Shown: piece by piece, positions 40,222 to 64,000 of the stretch
Position numbering within the stretch: position 1 is the stretch's first letter
How the letters are laid out: the number at the start of each line of letters is the position of its first letter
DNA from: a virus
Reading direction: 5' to 3' (one strand)
Length of the DNA: 64,000 bases
IMG/VR virus record: IMGVR_UViG_3300029922_000007
Location: 102,170 to 166,169 of that record
Notes under the pieces: model-generated
Told to the model about the DNA's origin: nothing
The model's database searches: none
Seen by the model: only the letters and a program-made list of their open reading frames with translations
Made by a program: the position numbers and the translations under genes

Positions 40222-43200
40222 CTAAATATCACAATTTCCAGAAGAACAGGCTAGAGACTTAGCTCCTTCCGTATTGTCTTCTTTTTCGTATGTACTTAAC
40301 TTAGAATAGTCCAGTTTAGGGAATGCTTTAGATAGCTTATGGAATTCTTCCTCTGTAATAGACTCATACGGGGCCTGCTCGTAAACATTGTCTTCGTGAG
40401 GCAAAAAAGATACTCCGTTGACAATATCCCAATTTTTGTAAACCCAATCCCCAACTGCAAGCCAGTCCTCGTTCTTTACATAGACCGTAATAGAGGCATT
40501 ATGTTCACACCAATTCTTTTGAACTTTCTTATAGTGTTCGAGCTGTTGGATGGCCGTAACATCTTCTACTGTGATGGCGTTTTTAGGGGCTGCAATTGGA
40601 AAGGATACTACCCAAGTGGACACCTTATCTTGAGACCATCCAGTATTGTCGAACATAGGGCAAATGGACTTTGCCTGTCTCATGGCCTCTGCTTTGCTTT
40701 CGATAGAGTCGTAGATCTTAAAGGCCTTAACGTAGTCTTGTTTGCGTTGACCATTTTCTGGGGACACGGGGCACCCTTGGTCTCTAATCATCCTAAAGAG
40801 TGGGTCGTTTGCAGAAATGCGGTACCTACGAATGTAGAATTTTGAGAAGCGAGGATGGAGCCCAGAGGCAGAGTCTACCAGTTGTGAGACCGTGTTGTGG
40901 CTTCTAACCGATCCATTGTAATACTGATGTTCTCCGCCGACTTCGATATCGAAAGTTTCTTTTTGTCCAATAGATCGAACGTTAGAAACAACTCCTGAAA
41001 CGTTTAAGGATTCCTTATTGTCTCTTTCAAAAAACCATCTACCTTCGTTAATAGTGTCAATGCTAGACATCTTATTGCTGTTCCTAATAAGGGTCTTACA
41101 AGATCCATTATCCGATATGGCCGCAATGGACATTAAGTACATTTCTTTATTTTTTTGTAAGTTTTTACCTTTATCATTTAAGGATCTTCCTAGACAAATA
41201 CCAACAGACCAAGCTACGTGCTGCAAATGCTTTGAAAAATTTTTATCTGCGGTGGTTATCATAGCTCTTTTTACTCCATCCTTATCTACTCCGGACCAAC
41301 CATCGGAGTCGATTAGGCCAGAAATAAAAGCGATTATATCATTTTTAGATGACATCCTAACGCATTTTGGGACAATATCTAACTTATCGGAAAAATATTT
41401 CCATACATCGTTTTTTATGAACCAGTGCCAAAGCATCTTGGATGAAATGTCTAAAGTAAGGGCCTTTCTATGTTCGCTAGCTTTATGAAGTTTGCTTTCT
41501 ATTCCGAATGTTTCTTTTAATACTCTCTGGGCCTTTTCAAGATTGAATACGTGTTCGTCGATAAAGCGAATCCTATACTTGATAGGACTCATGGCTCCAT
41601 CACCCCAGAGATAGCCTAGAAGCCAACAGAGATCCTCCGTCAATTCATTGGGCTGAATAATGGAGTCGTGATCTCCTCTCATTTTTAGGGCTCTAGAGTC
41701 TAATTTTAGTAATTTAGAATGTTTTTCTGAATCGTATAAGTTGGGATCAATCTGCAAAACATGGTTCTCTGAAATATGTTTGGTTTCCATCCATTCATTA
41801 ATCGGCTCGATTCCACTCCTACCTTTTCCGATTTTTTTACCCACCACGAACCATTTGTGGTTGGGTGTGCTCTGAACTGAGAGGCCATAGGACATAGTGA
41901 TTTCCACGACTTCAGAGATACCGTTATCGTAAGTTTTAGTTATCCATTGTTCTTCATCTTTACAGACAACGGCCACATTTTTGTTAAACTTAGACCACTG
42001 TTCTCCGTCGATATGGCCCTCAAACAATTCTTCTAATGTAAGGATTCCAGTGCTCGTTGTTGTTAATGCGTCCCACGGGCGACAGCCGCTGGGCTTCACG
42101 CAGGTAATAGCGGTAGGCATAGGAATACCCATCGTTTCAGAGGCCTTCTTAGCGACCTTAATAGCCTTAGACTTGTAGGCCTTGAGAGCAGCATCAGTAC
42201 ATACATCGAGATTGTCGAATTGTCCGGTGATAGAGACCCCCAAAAGACGTTCTTCATCGCAGTTTTCTTTCCAGGAACTGCTAAGATTTGGAAAATTGGT
42301 AAAACAAGATTGAAGAATGCCCATCCAAACGGCTGTTTCTACCTTTTCAAGCATGGTCTCAATGTCGTCTTCCGCGCGAGCTACTATTTCAGATAAATTG
42401 CAGAATTCTTTTGAGCGAAGTAAAATTTCTGAACACGGGTTAACTCCTTGAATTAACTCGGCTTTTCTACGTTTAGGCGCCATCTTTTTTGCTGTTTCTA
42501 GATTGCAAATACCACGTTCGCCAGATCCAGAAGCGGCTAGGGCGGTCCATTCCTTCATGAATGTGATCAAAGTTGGCTTCTTATGGTATACCGCTGAATT
42601 ATTGGACATATAGCGTCTAACGGGAAAGTTTCCACTCTTAGAGTCTCGCATAAGGACATCGTCCAAATCAGACAGGCTAATCTCTGAACTTCTGCGGACT
42701 CCACCTACCACTACGATTTGAGCGATCTCATTTAGGATATCGTGACATTCCAGAGAAGTAAGCTTACGACCTCTGGCACCGTGAAATGTGTCCCTAATGA
42801 AGGAGTGCAACTGGGCAAGAGGTGCTGGACCAGAAGAACGCCCTCCCATGGTTTTTAGGCGTGCTCCTGCAGGACGGAGTTGATTATAGTCATGGGTAAA
42901 GTCTTGACCAGCGTATAGGGAGTAGATGTGATCCCTGACCGAATTAGACCAGCCAACACGGGAGTCTTCTACGACGTGAACTTTTTCGGTAAGATGGATG
43001 TCCTTGGGCACTTCAGGTAATAGAGAGGTGTATTTATTCTCAACGGAGAATCCGTATCCAGTTCCACACATAAGGATATATAGAGCTTCATGGAAAGCGT
43101 CAATGCTATCTACAGCCGCAAAGGCACAGTTATAGATAGTGACATTATCAGCCATTGCAGGAGCACCAGCAGCCCAAAGGAACCGCATAGATGGCATAAC

Positions 43201-53265: not shown

Positions 53266-53405
53266 GAGTAAACCTTAAAAGCGCTTTTTGGGTCCACTAC
53301 CCAAAACTTATACTGCCAAAGACACTTAACTAGAATACCAATTGGCATAAAACGTACGATCCTAACAAGCCTGCCATTGATATCGAGTACATCGTCTACT
53401 TTCAT
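53262..53405 (-). CDS. Very small basic protein (47 residues)
   Basis: MKVDDVLDINGRLVRIVRFM, then LWQYKFWVVDPKSAF. It looks like a tiny SH3-like barrel. Linked by ATGA to the RNA ligase gene and to the next gene. Function unknown. Confidence 0.65.
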   Translation of the reverse strand: MKVDDVLDINGRLVRIVRFMPIGILVKCLWQYKFWVVDPKSAFKVYS

Positions 53406-54472
53406 TGCAGCACTTTCATGCTATTGCCATCTGGCCTGATCTGTTTTAGTATGTAGCCATCGAGAGCATCGTTCTTCCCAAGAAGGAAAGGGAATATTCC
53501 TTGGCTATACTTCACATCGTTATTGGCCAAGTAAAGACCAACATTTTTACGCCAATCAGGCCCAAAATTCTTCAGATTGTGGGTAACTGTCTCAAGGGCA
53601 ATAGTAACGAGAACATTCTTATATTGCTGATCAAGTTCAGCAACGTAAGGCTCATAATCCTTACGAAGTTCTTCCGGGAGTTGCTGTAAGTATGTCTGAT
53701 CTACTTTGCCGCCCTTCATAGTTTCCCAGAGCGCGATTGGGGATAGGCTGGACATGAGTTTGGCGATTCGGAGATACTCTTTTCCTTTGATCTTAACGCG
53801 GGTTCCATTTTCAAAACGGACCACGAATCCTTCATCGTCCTTTGGTAAAGTTTCTTGGAGAGCGATCATTTCGGGGATAGTGTAGTTGTAACTCTTAGCC
53901 ATCCTCATGCCCATAGAAGCGGCCATATATTGAACGGTTTCGTGATCGTGCTCGTAACCATCGTTGCGGCGGAAGGCCCCAAGTAGAACCAACTCTTCCG
54001 TGTCTCCATAGTTAATTATGATTCGGTTCTGAGGGTAAATGATTTCAGCGAGAAGAGTCGTATTGGGCTCGATGGATGAGAGGTTGTATTTTTTGAGTAG
54101 TTCTGCTCCTTTGGCCGCTTGATCTGAATAGAAGCTACCGCGAGTAGAAACGTGCCATTCTCCCTCGTAGTGGAATATGATGCCAAGAGAGCCGTCGACC
54201 TTTTCTGAAACCGTATAGGGAAGATCTGGTAGATTTTTAAGAAATGTCTGCTCCATCTCACCCAAATTAAAAAATTTTGGTATGCATTTTCCGACAACGT
54301 CGCCAGTATCCTTATTTAAGATCAGTCCCCGAGCGATAAGTGTGTATTCGTCCCAAGCTCTTTCGAACGTACATTTATCGGTATAACCGTATAAAATCAA
54401 GGACTTATACTCACTCTTACGAAGGAATCCCAGTTCTACACGTTTTTCGAATTCTGATAGGTCGTATTTCAC
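53402..54472 (-). CDS. rnlA: RNA ligase 1 family (T4 Rnl1/RnlA-like)
   Basis: A 356-residue ATP-dependent RNA ligase. The nucleotidyl Lys is Lys91 in SEKVDGSLG (motif I), with RGLIL near 48-52, TLLAEIIYP (motif IIIa), DDEGFVVRF (motif IV) and VKIKGKEYLRIAK (motif V). It would join RNA ends, most famously tRNA cut by anticodon nucleases such as PrrC. It follows the kinase gene with a one-base overlap (stop/start), so the two are made together, as expected for repair partners. The length is close to T4 RnlA (374). Confidence 0.9.
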   Translation of the reverse strand: MKYDLSEFEKRVELGFLRKSEYKSLILYGYTDKCTFERAWDEYTLIARGLILNKDTGDVVGKCIPKFFNLGEMEQTFLKNLPDLPYTVSEKVDGSLGIIFHYEGEWHVSTRGSFYSDQAAKGAELLKKYNLSSIEPNTTLLAEIIYPQNRIIINYGDTEELVLLGAFRRNDGYEHDHETVQYMAASMGMRMAKSYNYTIPEMIALQETLPKDDEGFVVRFENGTRVKIKGKEYLRIAKLMSSLSPIALWETMKGGKVDQTYLQQLPEELRKDYEPYVAELDQQYKNVLVTIALETVTHNLKNFGPDWRKNVGLYLANNDVKYSQGIFPFLLGKNDALDGYILKQIRPDGNSMKVLQ

Positions 54473-55338
54473 TAAAAATGCCCCTTCTCTCCAGCGCAGT
54501 CCAAAACTACAATTCCGTGGGATCTGATCTGGTCGATTACTTGCTTTCGATCATCCACGCAGAAGAGTAGATTATACTTAGTTTTGATCTCAAACTCAAG
54601 CATAATCTCCTTAACGATAGAGTCCTTTCGAGAATCATTAGTCCTGCGCATAATTAGCTGGTCGTAGGGAATATCATGGTATTTTAACCACTTCTCTGTT
54701 TGCTCTCTATAGTCTTCTGGACGACCTGAACAAATGAGAATATGGCTACAATAGCTCATGCCCACAGTCATTTTTTTACACCACCCATTTACTGGGTCTT
54801 CAGACATTCCCGCAAAGAAGGCAGGCCAATTCTTTTTAGGTCCTTGAACGTAGTGCTCTCTATGGGAAGCGTCAGACAGCGTATTGTCAGCATCCACCCA
54901 AATAGCTGGCGTCTTATAGCCTTCAGGCCAGCATCTCAAAACCCTATCGGCTTCCTCATCGGTAACGCGCTCGTATTTTGTAAAAAACATGTGTAGAGCT
55001 GACTTAGCATCGGTCTCGTTTTGAATGGTAAGATGGTCTTTACGTTCCATGCAGCGCTTAAAGCACGTATCGTAGGACTCATGAAGAACGGTAATGTGGG
55101 TACTATAGCCCAAAGCCTTAGCTGGATCTAAGTACCGATTCCGTTGACCTTTGGAGAAATTAAGGCGATCTACTACAATATCCTTGCCTTCTTGAAGGGC
55201 CAAGTTGAATAGGCGGAGATGATCTTTACCTTGAAGGTCTTGATTGATATACGTGACACCGCCCTTAGAACAATAGTCCAAAGCTAAGGTGGATTTCCCA
55301 GATCCTGGAGGGCCAACAAGCAATGTGAGTCTCTTCAT
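54472..55338 (-). CDS. pseT: Polynucleotide 5'-kinase / 3'-phosphatase (T4 Pnkp/PseT-like)
   Basis: A 288-residue two-domain enzyme. The N-terminal kinase has GPPGSGKST (9-17) and a nucleic-acid-binding part with VDRLNFSKGQRNRYL. The C-terminal HAD phosphatase has WVDADNTLSD (residues Asp-x-Asp), LICSGRPEDYRE and CVDDRKQVID. It prepares RNA ends (5'-P, 3'-OH) for the ligase. The canonical DxDGT is DADNT here. I start at 55338 because the other possible ATG (55356) lies inside the promoter; the -10 box is 8 bases before 55338. Confidence 0.9.
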   Translation of the reverse strand: MKRLTLLVGPPGSGKSTLALDYCSKGGVTYINQDLQGKDHLRLFNLALQEGKDIVVDRLNFSKGQRNRYLDPAKALGYSTHITVLHESYDTCFKRCMERKDHLTIQNETDAKSALHMFFTKYERVTDEEADRVLRCWPEGYKTPAIWVDADNTLSDASHREHYVQGPKKNWPAFFAGMSEDPVNGWCKKMTVGMSYCSHILICSGRPEDYREQTEKWLKYHDIPYDQLIMRRTNDSRKDSIVKEIMLEFEIKTKYNLLFCVDDRKQVIDQIRSHGIVVLDCAGEKGHF

Positions 55339-55346
55339 ACTTTCAT

Positions 55347-55375
55347 AGTATGCCATAGGGTTAAGGGATGGTCAA
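55347..55375 (-). promoter_or_regulatory. Sigma70-like promoter of the RNA-repair operon
   Basis: Minus strand: TTGACC (55375-55370), 17-base spacer, CATACT (55352-55347), then 8 bases and the ATG at 55338. Leader would be about one base; the operon would start with an almost leaderless mRNA. Confidence 0.6.
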
Positions 55376-55444: not shown

Positions 55445-56038
55445 ATGAAAGGCTGCAGGAACTTAACGGACGAAGAGATTGTCAATGTTTACAACGAGCT
55501 AAGCACTCCAAGGGATAAGAATATGTTTCTCGTCGGCGTGCTTACAGGCCTAAGAATTAGCGAACTCTTGAGTCTAAGGGTAAAGGATGTTTACGAAAAT
55601 GGTCGAATGTCAGAATGGATCACCGTAGCTAGAAAGAATACTAAGGGAAAGATCGAATCCAAGACCTTGCCCATGGTGGATGAGGCTCGAAACTCTTTGG
55701 AGAAGTTCATAAGCTCAATGGAAAATCCTAAGCCTACAGATCCACTCTTCAAGTCAACTCAGGGGGATAAAGCTATCTCTAGGGTTATGGCCCATAAGAT
55801 TTTAAAGAAAGCGTTTACTTCCCTAAAGATGACCGGAAAGCTTAGTACTCATAGCTGTAGGAAATCATTCGCTCAGAGGATCCATAAGGAGCTTGGAAAT
55901 CGAATTGAGAGAACACAGGTAGCTCTTTGCCATAAAAGCTTGTCGAGCACGGTTAGTTATATTCAGGTTGATAGGGAAGAAGTTGAGAATGGTATTCGGA
56001 ATGTTGGTGGATTTTTGGCTGGGAAGATTGTGGGGTAA
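55445..56038 (+). CDS. Minimal tyrosine recombinase
   Basis: A 197-residue protein with the complete catalytic set of tyrosine recombinases: Arg37 (TGLRISELLSL), Lys73, His136 and Arg139 (THSCRKSFA), His163 (ALCHKSL) and Tyr172. It lacks the usual N-terminal core-binding domain, so DNA binding must be by the catalytic domain alone or with a partner. The ribosome-binding site is strong (AAAGGAGG). It stands divergent to the RNA-repair operon. A role in resolving concatemers, flipping a segment or integration is possible; no flanking att-like repeat was seen. Confidence 0.85.
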   Translation: MKGCRNLTDEEIVNVYNELSTPRDKNMFLVGVLTGLRISELLSLRVKDVYENGRMSEWITVARKNTKGKIESKTLPMVDEARNSLEKFISSMENPKPTDPLFKSTQGDKAISRVMAHKILKKAFTSLKMTGKLSTHSCRKSFAQRIHKELGNRIERTQVALCHKSLSSTVSYIQVDREEVENGIRNVGGFLAGKIVG

Positions 56039-56656
56039 TTACCGACCGTACTTGGCGATCCACGATTCGATCTCCGAAATAGAAACGGGCCTGTAATTAT
56101 TTCCGACAACTCCAACATCCCTCTGTTTCCCTAAGATCTTCTGAGACTTACCACTATTAGGGCTATGTACATGACCATGACAGTGAAACTGGCCTCGATC
56201 AGGAACAGAATAGGCATGATTTTTATGGTCGCCATGCCAACAGGCTCCAAGTTGAGCGCCCTTCATTTCAGAAGTATCCTCACGCCATACACCCATAAGA
56301 GGACAATGCGACATGGTAACTTCATGTCCGGCAATCCAAAGGGAAGCTGAGTTCAAGACTACATCGAACCCAGCTTTATACATGGCGCTAGAGCCTTTGT
56401 CGTGATTGCCCATGATTAAGACTTTGGTGCCGTGGAGTTGGTCGATAATACCTTTTAGTTTATCTCCAGTACAAAGGCCCATATCGCCTAGAAAATAGGT
56501 AATGCTATCTTCGGGAACGGTAGAATTGAAGTTATTGATGAGAACCCTATGCATGTGGTCCAAGTTATCAAATGGACGCTTATCGAATTTTAACGAATTC
56601 TCATGAAAGCAATGCCAATCCGACGTCAGAAAAACGAGTTTACGTTCATTCCCCAT
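56039..56656 (-). CDS. Calcineurin-like metallophosphoesterase
   Basis: A 205-residue phosphoesterase with TSDWHCFHEN (Asp, His), FLGDMG, IMGNHDKG, VTMSHCP near 113 and HCHGHVHS near 160. It differs from the 35.5 kb enzyme in sequence and arrangement, resembling the small phage and bacterial phosphoesterases with the WHxxHxN start. Substrate unknown. It converges on the recombinase gene with adjacent stops and overlaps the upstream gene by 11 bases. Confidence 0.85.
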   Translation of the reverse strand: MGNERKLVFLTSDWHCFHENSLKFDKRPFDNLDHMHRVLINNFNSTVPEDSITYFLGDMGLCTGDKLKGIIDQLHGTKVLIMGNHDKGSSAMYKAGFDVVLNSASLWIAGHEVTMSHCPLMGVWREDTSEMKGAQLGACWHGDHKNHAYSVPDRGQFHCHGHVHSPNSGKSQKILGKQRDVGVVGNNYRPVSISEIESWIAKYGR

Positions 56657-57131
56657 ATGGTTTACCCTGAAACAAGTACACTTCCCTCTTCACCTTCCAA
56701 ATTTGAGCCTTGTTTGGGGTATAGCAGGCAAAGAAGTATCCTTTAGGCGTAAGATGAATTTCGAAGTTCTTAGGCTCACAAGCCATCCAAAGTCTAGGCT
56801 CAAGTCGAACGAGGTGGGTTGGGCTACCCATGTTCTTAGCGCACTCTACGACGATATCGGAAACTAGTTCCAGGAGAGATTCTTTAAAGACTTCTACGGT
56901 TGGAATGTGCTGTAGGAAGTCGTAAGGAGTTAAAGGAAGCGAGTAATTTAGCAGAACAGCCGTACACCTGCGAAGAGGAGATTCGTAAAAGGATGAGCGC
57001 CCTATTCTTTTATAATATTGGAGATGGTGAGTGTCCCATTTATTTTCTCTAGTGGGAATGAGCTTTATGAATTCCTTGAGAGAAATAGGACTGACTGACC
57101 CAAAAGAAGTGTTGATGATGCTAGGGTTCAT
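56646..57131 (-). CDS. Hypothetical protein
   Basis: A 161-residue protein (MNPSIINTSFGSVSPISLKEF) with a mixed alpha/beta pattern. GAGG lies 6 bases before the ATG at 57131; a TTG at 57152 is less likely. It is the first gene downstream of the structured RNA region and could be controlled by it. No family recognised. Confidence 0.65.
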   Translation of the reverse strand: MNPSIINTSFGSVSPISLKEFIKLIPTRENKWDTHHLQYYKRIGRSSFYESPLRRCTAVLLNYSLPLTPYDFLQHIPTVEVFKESLLELVSDIVVECAKNMGSPTHLVRLEPRLWMACEPKNFEIHLTPKGYFFACYTPNKAQIWKVKREVYLFQGKPYGE

Positions 57132-57241
57132 TAATACCTCGTAACCAACCAAAATAGTTGAAGTGTTGCAAGTTTTTCTTCGAGTTCTTCGTAAGAAGGT
57201 TTCATAAGGAACATCTTAGCACCAAGGACGGACTTGTGCAA

Positions 57242-57542
57242 TATTTTTCTTGGGCGTAGCCCAAGGGGCGCAGTGCCCCTTCAAGTACGTTGCAACTGAT
57301 GCAAAATGGGCGTCGACTCTTGGTAGGTAGTTGATACTATGGGTGTTTTATGGAGTGTGGATGGGCTAGATCGCTACTTCTAGCTTTGGTGGGTATTTAT
57401 CAGATTCATTTCCCACCGCCGACGTGTCGGGCCGGTAGACTGCTCCAAGGGTAGTGCCGTTCGCGGGACACGATTCCGAGTCACACCTTTCGGTGAAGAA
57501 CCTTCTAGTTATTTATATCCCTATCTACAATCAATCTCATCC
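57242..57542 (-). ncRNA. Putative structured RNA or long 5' leader
   Basis: In this gene-free stretch the minus strand can fold into many hairpins. CACC-GAAA-GGTG lies at 57484-57495. CCG-CGAA-CGG lies at 57457-57466 with an outer GTG/CAC pair. CCGA/TCGG is at 57419-57430; GGTGGG/CCCACC at 57388-57417; GCTAGA/TCTAGC at 57365-57384; GGGGC/GCCCC at 57265-57279; CTTGGGC/GCCCAAG at 57249-57265. Two have GNRA-type tetraloops. A good promoter is just upstream. The GC content is visibly higher than in the flanking genes. I cannot assign it to a known class. Confidence 0.55.
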
Positions 57543-57548
57543 AAGGCT

Positions 57549-57576
57549 AGGATATCAAAATGGGGAAGGGTGTCAA
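57549..57576 (-). promoter_or_regulatory. Sigma70-like promoter of the structured RNA
   Basis: Minus strand: TTGACA (57576-57571), 16 bases, TATCCT (57554-57549). The start would be near 57542. A CTTGGCC-TTC-GGCCAAAG type hairpin lies between the HNH stop and this promoter. Confidence 0.65.
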
Positions 57577-57609
57577 GCTTTAGATTTCTTTGGCCGAAGG
57601 CCAAGGGGG

Positions 57610-58527
57610 TTATAGGATCCCGTTGGCGAGTTTATACGCGTCCCATTCTTCGGGCGATTTATCTCTCTTGAGAAAATTATCTTTTTGCCATAAAGGCTGG
57701 AAATTTGAGAAATGGTTCAACCTGTATAGGTCTTCCACGCTTTTAGCCTCGGCCATGGGCGTGATGTGGTCGATATTCCACTTATCTTCGCCGTAGCCGT
57801 AGTTATCCCAGGACATGCCTGGTTGCCAGAGGGACTCTAAGTGGGCCTTAAACTCTTGCGAGTTGCAACCAAGGTAAAGACTTAGCTTAGAACTTTTTAC
57901 GAAGCCATTGTACTTAGTGGCACCGCTAACAGCTCTTCTAATATTGTCGGCCAATTTAACCATAGGGTTTTCTTGGCGCTTCTTTCTTCTTTTGGCGTTT
58001 AGGGCGTCCCTATTTTCTTCGTGATACTTTCTAGTCTTAATTTTTCGTTTTTCTCTGTGTTTGTAGTGGGATGCTCTTTGCCCTTCTGCTCTTTTTTCTG
58101 GATCTTTCGCTTTATATTCTTTATTGTAATCTGAGCGACATTTTTTACAGTCCGCCGACAGTCCATGAAAACCTCCCGCACTTTTATTGAAGAATTCTTT
58201 AGTTTCTTCTTTTAATATTAAGCACTTAGAGCAGTTCTTAAACCCAGGAAGAGGAGCTTCGTGCTGAAATCTTTTAGGCCTACCTGGAGGCCTACTCGTT
58301 TGTTTTGATTGGGACTCTTCGTTCTTTCTCGGGCGACCCCGTGGTTTTCCGTTAGGAACGTACCCCTGGGAATGCCGTTGCGCTGCATACAGTTGCATGC
58401 AGTTCTTACACCAAGAGGATAGGCCGCTTTTTATTTTAACGTTGATGTTAAAATCGGCTACCGGAAGATTTTGGCTACATTTGGAACAGTTTTTATGGCC
58501 ATCGATTATAGAGAATTTGGTATTCAT
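57610..58527 (-). CDS. HNH endonuclease with Cys-pair repeats and AT-hook-like motifs
   Basis: A 305-residue protein. The N-terminal half has two Cys-rich repeats (NCSKCSQNLPVADF with CKNC; NCSKCLILKEETKEFF with CKKC) and, between them, basic RGRPRK and GRPKR, like AT-hooks. The C-terminal half is the HNH domain: YLGCNSQEFKAHLESLW, KWNIDHITPMAEAKS, HFSNFQPLWQKDNFLKRDK. It probably binds and cuts a homing site. It lies upstream of the structured RNA region; the two may move together. Confidence 0.85.
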   Translation of the reverse strand: MNTKFSIIDGHKNCSKCSQNLPVADFNINVKIKSGLSSWCKNCMQLYAAQRHSQGYVPNGKPRGRPRKNEESQSKQTSRPPGRPKRFQHEAPLPGFKNCSKCLILKEETKEFFNKSAGGFHGLSADCKKCRSDYNKEYKAKDPEKRAEGQRASHYKHREKRKIKTRKYHEENRDALNAKRRKKRQENPMVKLADNIRRAVSGATKYNGFVKSSKLSLYLGCNSQEFKAHLESLWQPGMSWDNYGYGEDKWNIDHITPMAEAKSVEDLYRLNHFSNFQPLWQKDNFLKRDKSPEEWDAYKLANGIL

Positions 58528-59084
58528 AAATGTTATATATCATAGGATTTTTTTAAAAAAATATTTTTGTACATAGGATGATAGGTAATGAAAATATTTA
58601 GAAATTTTAAAGACGTTTTCATGTCCGTATTACTCGGGTGAAGTGTGTCGTAGGTGACACAGACCCCGGTAAACGGGTATTATGTCAATCATTTCATATA
58701 CTTAAACCTGTGTCAGTCTCCTGCGACGCAGGGATGTGTCGCCTATTTTAAATGCATGGGCAATATACGTGCCGAATCAATAACCGTGCCATTGCGTCAT
58801 ATGCGCTATAGGGCGTTATAGACGACGCACTGTTACATGACGCCATTGCATAGGCCGATACGCTGAAGGAGCGCCATAGCCTTGCAATGCCTCAATAGGT
58901 CAAGTCTAATAGGATGCATTAGACGCGGTTAGATAGGCGCGGCGCAGTGCTCGCTTGAGTGTGTCATGATGGACACGGGTTGTGAGCGCTCGTTTGAGGT
59001 AGGTTTCGGCGTGGTTAACATTATCCTATATCGTATACCGTATGGATAACTAATTAGAATTTAAAGAGAATATAGAATCTCGTT
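58528..59084. other. Non-coding region with paired GTGTC-N6-GACAC sites
   Basis: No credible gene is seen in these 557 bases. It holds two identical-architecture sites, GTGTC-N6-GACAC at 58645-58660 and 58961-58976. There are repeats of GCCATTGC and its complement-like forms, many short palindromes (CCCG/CGGG, CTGCG/CGCAG), and an AT-rich palindrome (ATTTTTTTAAAAAAAT) near 58550. It separates the HNH gene from the right-hand genes. It may be a regulatory or replication region. Confidence 0.5.
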
Positions 59085-59354: not shown

Positions 59355-59690
59355 TCATTTTTCCCTAATGAATGTATCTATTATCCCTTTGGCATATCGT
59401 CTGCAATAACTCATGGTGTCCAGTTTGATTTAAACCGCTAGTAACTCGACTAAGCCTAACCCGCATACCGCACCATTGTTTTACATGGGTTAGACTTCCA
59501 AGGGTTTACACGTCTAGGTATCCCTGTACCAGACTTTGACGCTAGCAGGATATCCCACAATTCTATCGGCACTGGCGCATGCGCGGTCGATACGGTCAAG
59601 GGGATTAGACGACTAAGGCTCTAAATATTGACTCAAGTATTTGACTTCATTAAATAAAACTTTCATTGCGTTTTAACTAACGCATCTAAT

Positions 59691-59708
59691 GGCATGTTGC
59701 AACATGCC
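59691..59708. promoter_or_regulatory. Perfect 18-base palindrome, possible operator
   Basis: GGCATGTTGCAACATGCC about 90 bases before the ATG of the first rightward gene. Two-fold symmetry over 18 bases is typical of a dimeric repressor site. Confidence 0.45.
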
Positions 59709-59713
59709 TAACG

Positions 59714-59747
59714 CCTCATACCGGGTTAGCAATGACTCGGTATGAGG
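59714..59747 (+). terminator. Hairpin before first rightward gene
   Basis: CCTCATACCG (59714-59723) with CGGTATGAGG (59738-59747), a 10-bp perfect stem and a 14-base loop. Followed by TCCCGCCTTTG, so it is a weak terminator or a leader structure. Confidence 0.4.
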
Positions 59748-59799
59748 TCCCGCCTTTGTCCTATTGAGTCTGATAACATGTTGAACGTATGAGGTACTT

Positions 59800-61851: not shown

Positions 61852-62250
61852 ATGTTTAAAATCAATAGTATATCTCGTTTTAGTTCGGATACTGTCAAGG
61901 TTTCAATTGACTGCAATGCGCGTGCATGGGCGATAGCTAAAAAGACTGGCACGCTAGGCACGCTATACGGTATTGACGTATCTAATGCGGTGTATCAAAT
62001 GCATGGGGTTAAGGCTAGCAATCCGACCGTATCGGACGATAAAAGAGCTAGTATGACAGGGGTTAAGTCTATTGATCTTTATTACCGTGATTCCGAATGG
62101 TCCGCGCCTATCGATAACGTTATCCGCATGCCTAACCTTTTTGCCTCTAATGCCAGTGCTAAGGCTATTCGAGGGGATGGAGCTAGTCCTACGGATAGTG
62201 TGAATAATGTTATTGCGGTCGATTTCATTAATCGCCGCAAAATCGCTTGA
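61852..62250 (+). CDS. Hypothetical protein
   Basis: A 132-residue protein (MFKINSISRFSSDTVKVSID). Mixed beta-strand and polar sequence, with a segment IRMPNLFASNASAKAI. GGGAG lies about 5 bases before the ATG. Not recognised. Confidence 0.65.
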   Translation: MFKINSISRFSSDTVKVSIDCNARAWAIAKKTGTLGTLYGIDVSNAVYQMHGVKASNPTVSDDKRASMTGVKSIDLYYRDSEWSAPIDNVIRMPNLFASNASAKAIRGDGASPTDSVNNVIAVDFINRRKIA

Positions 62251-62875: not shown

Positions 62876-63214
62876 TCTAAGCTAGTTAACTCTCAATTGA
62901 CGGTATCACTTCGACCGCTAGGTTTTGCTATAGGACACGATTAGAGGTCAATAGCGGTCGAAGTGATACCGGGTTAGGGCGATAGCCTATCGCGCTGTTT
63001 TTGACTCCCTGCTAGGCATGCGGCGCGAGTCAATACCGTGACACGGCTATTACATTATATAGCTGTTAAAATTTCAAGTATTCCCGACACATGGGTTACT
63101 ATCGCTATGCCTTGATTGACACATTGCGTTAATTTCGGCCCAGTCTTTTTGGACACACCCCCTGTGTCAAATCGGATTTTTACCCTGGATCTTTTTCCCT
63201 AATAGGAGATTTTT
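62876..63214. other. Non-coding region with a 20-bp inverted repeat
   Basis: No credible gene in these 339 bases. The main feature is the 20-bp inverted repeat at 62901-62971. It also has GACAC at 63040, 63086, 63118 and GACAC-N7-GTGTC at 63152-63168. A TTTT-rich stretch and AGGAG precede the gene at 63215. Confidence 0.6.
62901..62971. repeat. Perfect 20-bp inverted repeat
   Basis: CGGTATCACTTCGACCGCTA (62901-62920) and its exact reverse complement (62952-62971) with a 31-base spacer. No T-run follows either arm. It could be a bidirectional transcription barrier, an origin hairpin or a protein-binding pair. Confidence 0.9.
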
Positions 63215-63702: not shown

Positions 63703-64000
63703 ATGAAACTGCAAATTAAGAATCGGTTTACGGATCTTGTTATTTTTGAAGCTGATACTGCGGATATGAAAGCCTTAGTTCTATTGGCTATCGCTTCCGA
63801 TATCTCTCTGTCTGGGGCCAACCTGTCTGGGGCCAACCTGTCTGGGGCCAACCTGTCTGGGGCCAACCTGTCTGGGGCCAACCTGTCTCGGGCCAACCTG
63901 TCTCGGGCCAACCTGTCTCGGGCCAACCTGTATGGGGCCGACCTGTCTCGGGCCTACCTGTCTGGGGCCTACCTGTCTGGGGCCGACCTGTCTGGGGCCA
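63703..64000 (+). CDS. Pentapeptide-repeat protein (cut by window end)
   Basis: Starting [20 protein letters not shown], with AAGGAG about 15 bases before the ATG. From residue 37 it is a run of A(N/D/Y)LS(G/R) pentapeptides ([20 protein letters not shown] and so on), forming a right-handed beta-helix. The 15-base unit CTGTCTGGGGCCAAC is repeated with hardly any change up to the end of the window. Such proteins can mimic DNA and bind gyrase, but this one could have another role. The C-terminus is outside the window. Confidence 0.8.
63808..64000 (+). repeat. Tandem 15-base coding repeat
   Basis: CTGTCTGGGGCCAAC and variants with CGGGCC, TATGGGG and GCCTAC, at least twelve copies, going past the window end. 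It encodes the pentapeptide repeat. Confidence 0.9.

What the first reader, a model, noticed from the sequence alone, without database searches (positions are those of the whole stretch)
57242..57542. Candidate structured non-coding RNA with GNRA tetraloops
A gene-free, GC-richer stretch is preceded by a good leftward sigma70-like promoter. It can fold into at least seven local hairpins, two with GNRA-type loops (GAAA, CGAA), and lies between an HNH endonuclease gene and the next gene. It may be a stable RNA, a ribozyme, a riboswitch-type leader or an endonuclease-linked mobile RNA. I cannot match it to a known class.
Basis: partly seen in the sequence, partly recalled or inferred. Interest (0 to 1): 0.72.

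Follow-up and report, generated by a model that had tools for sequence, protein, structure and literature searches.

The report
Promoter-driven phage spacer, possible small RNA
This is a short stretch of phage DNA with no protein gene in it but with a convincing start signal for making RNA; it may make a small RNA or a long untranslated leader, yet its predicted folds are mostly no better than chance and no relative of it was found, so it is a modest lead.

Summary
The stretch is real: gene-free, G+C 49.5% (window 44.0%), between an HNH (endonuclease VII-like) gene and a leftward operon in a large phage distantly related to Myxococcus phage Mx1. The promoter is the strongest part. It is one of ten perfect copies in the genome of a motif TTGACn-N16-18(TGn)-TAnnnT, eight of them intergenic. 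Each of the other nine starts an ORF within 28 nt or a tRNA-Ser-like gene at once. Only this one leads into 328 nt without a plausible ORF.

The hairpin argument fails as stated: count and folding energy are within shuffles, and CGAA is not a GNRA loop. One part is unusual: a tandem GC-rich hairpin (57249-57281).

Rfam, 42 related phage records, annotated phages, plasmids and single-sequence covariance models gave no relative. In the one syntenic relative (G002) the slot carries another homing endonuclease and a promoter-headed tRNA-Ser-like gene, with no detectable similarity to this stretch.

Best reading: a leftward transcript with a long untranslated leader or orphan small RNA, in a turnover-prone slot beside a homing endonuclease. 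No support for a ribozyme, riboswitch, group I intron or HEARO. Covariation could not be tested.

The parts
57549..57576 (-). promoter: TTGACA, 16 nt ending TGA, TATCCT (extended -10); predicted start of transcription at 57542
   Evidence: perfect match to a motif whose perfect copies are intergenic in 8 of 10 cases
57215..57542 (-). 328-nt untranslated stretch from the predicted start to the first possible small gene: leader or small-RNA candidate
   Evidence: no SD-preceded ORF of 60 aa or more for 411 nt; other promoters of this type have leaders of 0-28 nt or head a tRNA-like gene
57505..57540 (-). 11-codon ORF starting 3 nt into the predicted transcript (MRLIVDRDINN); possible leader peptide or gene remnant
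   Evidence: read from sequence; no homology test is meaningful at this length
57484..57495 (-). CACC-GAAA-GGTG hairpin, GNRA tetraloop
   Evidence: sequence; 4-bp stem, not significant alone
57388..57417 (-). hairpin GGTGGG/CCCACC, 18-nt loop
   Evidence: pair probability 0.79
57365..57384 (-). hairpin GCTAGA/TCTAGC, 8-nt loop
   Evidence: pair probability 0.95
57249..57281 (-). tandem GC-rich hairpins AAGGGGC-ACTGC-GCCCCTT and CTTGGGC-TAC-GCCCAAG, followed by AAAAATATT
   Evidence: two of 12 hairpins of this strength counted in the 166-kb genome
57131..57214 (-). 27-aa ORF (MFLMKPSYEELEEKLATLQLFWLVTRY) whose stop overlaps the next start (TAATG)
   Evidence: weak match to phrog_32687, E = 0.026
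56646..57131 (-). 161-aa gene, no known family, Shine-Dalgarno GAGGT; first sizeable gene of the leftward operon
57610..58527 (-). free-standing HNH homing endonuclease, endonuclease VII-like
   Evidence: phrog_1035 E = 4.8e-28
57590..57604 (-). TTGGCCTTCGGCCAA hairpin just after the endonuclease stop codon; kept in part in the sister phage
   Evidence: 62-bp block 57592-57653 is 82% identical to G002 41615-41676

Best explanation
The stretch is the transcribed, untranslated start of a leftward unit. An extended -10 sigma70-type promoter (57576-57549) starts RNA at about 57542. The RNA has no plausible long reading frame for 328 nt, carries ordinary local hairpins, and reaches a rigid double hairpin (57281-57249) with an A/U-rich single strand behind it, followed by a 27-aa ORF coupled to a 161-aa gene. 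I think the most likely working form is a short-lived orphan small RNA or long 5' leader, with the double hairpin protecting a 3' end after cleavage in the A/U-rich stretch. It lies in a slot beside a homing endonuclease where small cargo genes, including promoter-headed tRNA-like genes, come and go. Shown: promoter match, absence of a sizeable ORF, double hairpin, a different content of the slot in the sister phage. Inferred: transcription, processing, any function.
For: Promoter motif perfect and enriched in intergenic DNA. Of ten perfect copies in this genome, eight start an ORF at 0-28 nt and one heads a tRNA-Ser-like gene; this one alone leads into 328 nt without a plausible ORF (some ORF assignments were made by hand from the ORF lists). 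In sister phage G002 the same slot has two perfect copies of the motif, one of them 4 nt before a tRNA-Ser-like gene. Both slots are unusually GC-rich non-coding gaps (0.47 and 0.49) and hold some of the rare strong hairpins of their genomes.
Against: Folding of the whole stretch is not better than shuffles. No homologue anywhere searched. No sequence or structure similarity to the sister phage's slot. No transcript data; no terminator found on the minus strand. An 11-codon ORF starts at +3 and could make this a leader peptide or a dead gene.
Confidence: 0.5

Rival explanations
1. Decayed spacer. Endonuclease turnover in this slot left a remnant of a lost gene (a short-leader cargo gene or a tRNA). 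The promoter survives from that gene and now only reads through to the leftward operon; the RNA sequence has no role.
For: Most promoters of this kind start a gene within 28 nt; an ORF opens at +3 but ends after 11 codons; the stretch is unalignable with the sister phage while the flank aligns; folding is near chance.
Against: The double hairpin is rare in the genome; no convincing family match in any reading frame; G+C is higher than the genome average.
Confidence: 0.33
2. Attenuator or riboswitch-type leader that controls the leftward operon, perhaps through the 11-codon leader peptide.
For: Long leader before an operon, short ORF at +3, several hairpins.
Against: No Rfam riboswitch or leader match even at relaxed thresholds; no terminator with a U tract on the minus strand; no homologues.
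Confidence: 0.08
3. An RNA on the opposite (+) strand, 57347-57535, forming a closed multi-branch fold, transcribed from a one-mismatch promoter at 57313-57340; the sister phage has a cloverleaf-like + strand fold and a perfect + strand promoter in its slot.
For: z = -2.10 for 57347-57535 +; one-mismatch promoter at G000 159482; cloverleaf-like fold L019:3488-3601 z = -2.34.
Against: Cross-searching models of the two folds gave only chance scores; a one-mismatch promoter is expected by chance in roughly a fifth of such gaps (estimated from the counts); it would run head-on into the leftward transcript.
Confidence: 0.06
4. Ribozyme, group I or II intron, HEARO/omega RNA or other endonuclease-linked mobile RNA.
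For: Neighbouring HNH gene; one GAAA tetraloop.
Against: No Rfam match at gathering or relaxed thresholds; the HNH protein has no IscB/Cas9-type family match; the endonuclease in the sister phage's slot is of another family.
Confidence: 0.03

Closest known systems
Promoter-headed phage tRNA genes (tRNA-Ser(CGA)-like genes at G000 62081-62173 and G002 41198-41291)
   Same: Same promoter motif directly before a non-coding stretch; in G002 in the syntenic slot beside a homing endonuclease
   Different: This stretch has no cloverleaf, no T-arm and no tRNA call
Intergenic free-standing homing endonuclease loci of T4-like phages (from general knowledge)
   Same: HNH gene without an intron between cargo genes; different endonuclease at the same site in a relative
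   Different: Here a long untranslated stretch follows
HEARO / IscB omega RNA
   Same: HNH nuclease gene next to a possible structured RNA of about 300 nt
   Different: No HEARO match in Rfam, protein is endonuclease VII-like, RNA lies 3' of the gene behind its own promoter
GOLLD / ROOL large phage-linked RNAs
   Same: Large non-coding RNAs found in phages
   Different: No Rfam match; no significant overall fold

Membership tests
HEARO / omega RNA with IscB-type HNH | covariance-model match to HEARO | tested here: not met
   no match
HEARO / omega RNA with IscB-type HNH | RuvC plus HNH protein of IscB type | tested here: not met
   endonuclease VII-like only, no IscB family
Group I / group II intron | catalytic core recognised by Rfam intron models | tested here: not met
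Group I / group II intron | interrupted exon on both sides | tested here: not met
   HNH ORF is free-standing; flanking ORFs are separate, with no split gene seen
tRNA / tmRNA gene | cloverleaf or tmRNA fold | tested here: not met
   relaxed ARAGORN gave only spurious calls
Structured non-coding RNA (general) | fold more stable than shuffled sequence | tested here: inconclusive
   whole stretch z about -1; 3' 150 nt z = -2.85
Structured non-coding RNA (general) | covarying base pairs in homologues | not testable with these tools
   no homologue found in any collection searched
Promoter-driven non-coding transcript | own promoter and no sizeable ORF directly downstream | tested here: met
Promoter-driven non-coding transcript | RNA detected in infected cells | not testable with these tools
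   no transcript data

The most novel reading that the evidence does not exclude
A phage-specific small RNA gene of about 300 nt with a double-hairpin 3' end, with no relative in Rfam, sitting in a homing-endonuclease slot that this phage lineage uses to exchange promoter-headed RNA genes.
Probability: 0.15. Interest if true: 0.5.

Novelty: new member of a known kind. Interest (0 to 1): 0.25.

Why it matters
If an RNA is made, it would be an orphan small RNA in a little-known group of large phages, and it would suggest that homing-endonuclease slots exchange RNA genes as well as protein genes. The genome-wide promoter motif found on the way is a useful tool for annotating these phages.

Tried and rejected
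Rfam at gathering and relaxed thresholds on the window locus and the sister locus: nothing convincing. Group I/II intron, HEARO, tRNA/tmRNA: rejected, see membership table. Hidden coding: stop-to-stop frames gave no convincing PHROG match (best E = 0.026, the 27-aa ORF). Sibling phages were found through terminase and through a tyrosine-recombinase-like neighbour; only G002 proved syntenic at this place; 42 records searched with the stretch itself gave chance hits. The remaining contig scans returned only G002. Single-sequence covariance models R1-R3 found only themselves plus chance hits. TROVE/Ro60-Y RNA idea: the TROVE protein is in Mx1 and G004 but was not found in this phage record or in G002. 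GC-skew origin idea: no clear extreme at the locus. A paper search for phage HNH-linked structured RNA gave nothing that I could apply; nothing was found on phage Mx1.

Full report
What the window is. The window is the last 64 kb of a 166,169-base virus record (G000). Its terminase is 31% identical to that of Myxococcus phage Mx1 and 77% identical to that of a 162-kb record, G002 = IMGVR_UViG_3300037231_000119. G002 is largely syntenic with the window. The finding lies between a leftward HNH endonuclease gene (57610-58527; PHROG endonuclease VII, E = 4.8e-28) and leftward small genes (27-aa ORF 57131-57214, 161-aa ORF 56646-57131, phosphoesterase 56039-56656).

The observation. The stretch has no ORF of 60 aa or more and is GC-richer than average (49.5% against 44.0%; 9% of windows of that size reach it). 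Hairpins are not more frequent than in dinucleotide shuffles (10 against 8.1, reached by 17% of shuffles) and the folding energy is not unusual (z = -0.97; z = -0.93; z = -1.39 for the longer stretch). One GNRA loop is real (GAAA, 57495-57484); CGAA is not GNRA. The exception is a pair of abutting GC-rich hairpins at 57249-57281: 12 perfect hairpins with at least 6 bp and 5 GC pairs were counted in the whole genome and two are here (expected 0.03; they abut, so they are not independent). The 150 nt around them on the minus strand have z = -2.85, although a narrower cut is not significant (z = -0.76).

The promoter. A scan for TTGACn, spacer 16-18, TGn before TAnnnT finds ten perfect copies in G000, eight of them in the 10.5% of the genome without an ORF. 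So this is very probably a real sigma70-type promoter of the phage. What follows each copy is telling (read together with the ORF lists; some assignments were made by hand because the script demanded a Shine-Dalgarno sequence). Eight start an ORF at 0-28 nt, several of them homing endonucleases. One heads a tRNA-Ser(CGA)-like gene (G000 62081-62173). The copy in the finding (57576-57549) predicts a start at 57542 and then 328 nt before the 27-aa ORF and 411 nt before an SD-preceded ORF of 60 aa or more. The only ORF near the start is an 11-codon frame at +3.

The same slot in the sister phage. A 62-bp block covering the end of the HNH gene and a hairpin after its stop is 82% identical in G002. 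There the endonuclease itself is of another family (phrog_559/phrog_9084), and the 400 nt that follow do not align convincingly with ours. That slot holds a tRNA-Ser-like sequence with a 7-bp acceptor stem, two loops of T-loop type and a long variable arm (L019:3198-3291, minus). ARAGORN with default settings does not call it. It starts 4 nt after the predicted start of a perfect copy of the promoter. A second perfect promoter points the other way. Both slots are GC-rich non-coding gaps (0.47 and 0.49). So the position appears to host changing cargo: endonucleases, and in G002 an RNA gene.

Search for relatives. Nothing was found by blastn in 50,697 phage records and 72,556 plasmids (chance hits only), in 42 records of the wider phage group, by an exact 20-mer in 84,980 prokaryote genomes, by Rfam, or by single-sequence covariance models of either strand. 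Two further contig scans aimed at neighbouring genes returned only G002.

Interpretation. The most economical reading is a leftward transcript that begins with a long untranslated stretch ending in a rigid double hairpin next to an A/U-rich strand (AAAAATATT). It could be a separate small RNA after cleavage there, or simply a leader. A decayed cargo gene that left its promoter behind explains nearly as much, and the 11-codon ORF at +3 fits that. Ribozyme, intron, HEARO and tRNA/tmRNA membership were tested and not met. A + strand RNA is weakly suggested (z = -2.10, and a one-mismatch promoter) but did not match the sister fold.

Verdict. The promoter and the missing gene are solid; the structured-RNA claim rests on one double hairpin; there is no conservation. 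Moderate-to-low interest.

Noticed in passing
window 59628-59777: Non-coding region right of the HNH gene folds far better than shuffles (z = -7.45): a 16-bp hairpin (59713-59748) and GGCATGT-TGCA-ACATGCC (59691-59708). Much stronger than the finding itself.
   Followed up: partly
window 62900-62971: 20-bp hairpin CGGTATCACTTCGACCGCTA / TAGCGGTCGAAGTGATACCG in a gene-free gap (z = -3.43).
   Followed up: no
window 58681-58704: 24-mer TATGTCAATCATTTCATATA[C/G]TTA in the non-coding region right of the HNH gene, kept with one difference at the syntenic place in G002 (42855); it could be the start of a tiny ORF (MSIISY).
   Followed up: partly
L009:2081-2173 (G000 62081-62173) and L019:3198-3291: tRNA-Ser(CGA)-like genes whose anticodon loop TTCGATT looks like a T-loop, each with its own phage promoter; otherwise dissimilar in sequence.
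   Followed up: partly
L019:3573-3600 and L019:3197-3220: In G002 the 3' end of the tRNA-like gene is complementary over about 23 bp to a stretch some 375 nt away, so the slot is flanked by an inverted repeat.
   Followed up: partly
G000 genome-wide: Promoter motif TTGACn-N16-18(TGn)-TAnnnT with leaders of 0-28 nt, some leaderless, often before homing endonuclease genes.
   Followed up: partly
window 53402-55356: T4-type RNA ligase and polynucleotide kinase genes side by side, with a second RNA ligase at L009:2196-2993 just after a tRNA-like gene; suggests tRNA repair.
   Followed up: no
window 63800-64000: 15-nt direct repeats TGTCTGGGGCCAACC, which could code for pentapeptide-type repeats, run off the window end.
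   Followed up: no
window 55445-56038: Small tyrosine-recombinase-like gene (197 aa) next to the slot, kept in G002 (59% identity) and in other phages.
   Followed up: partly
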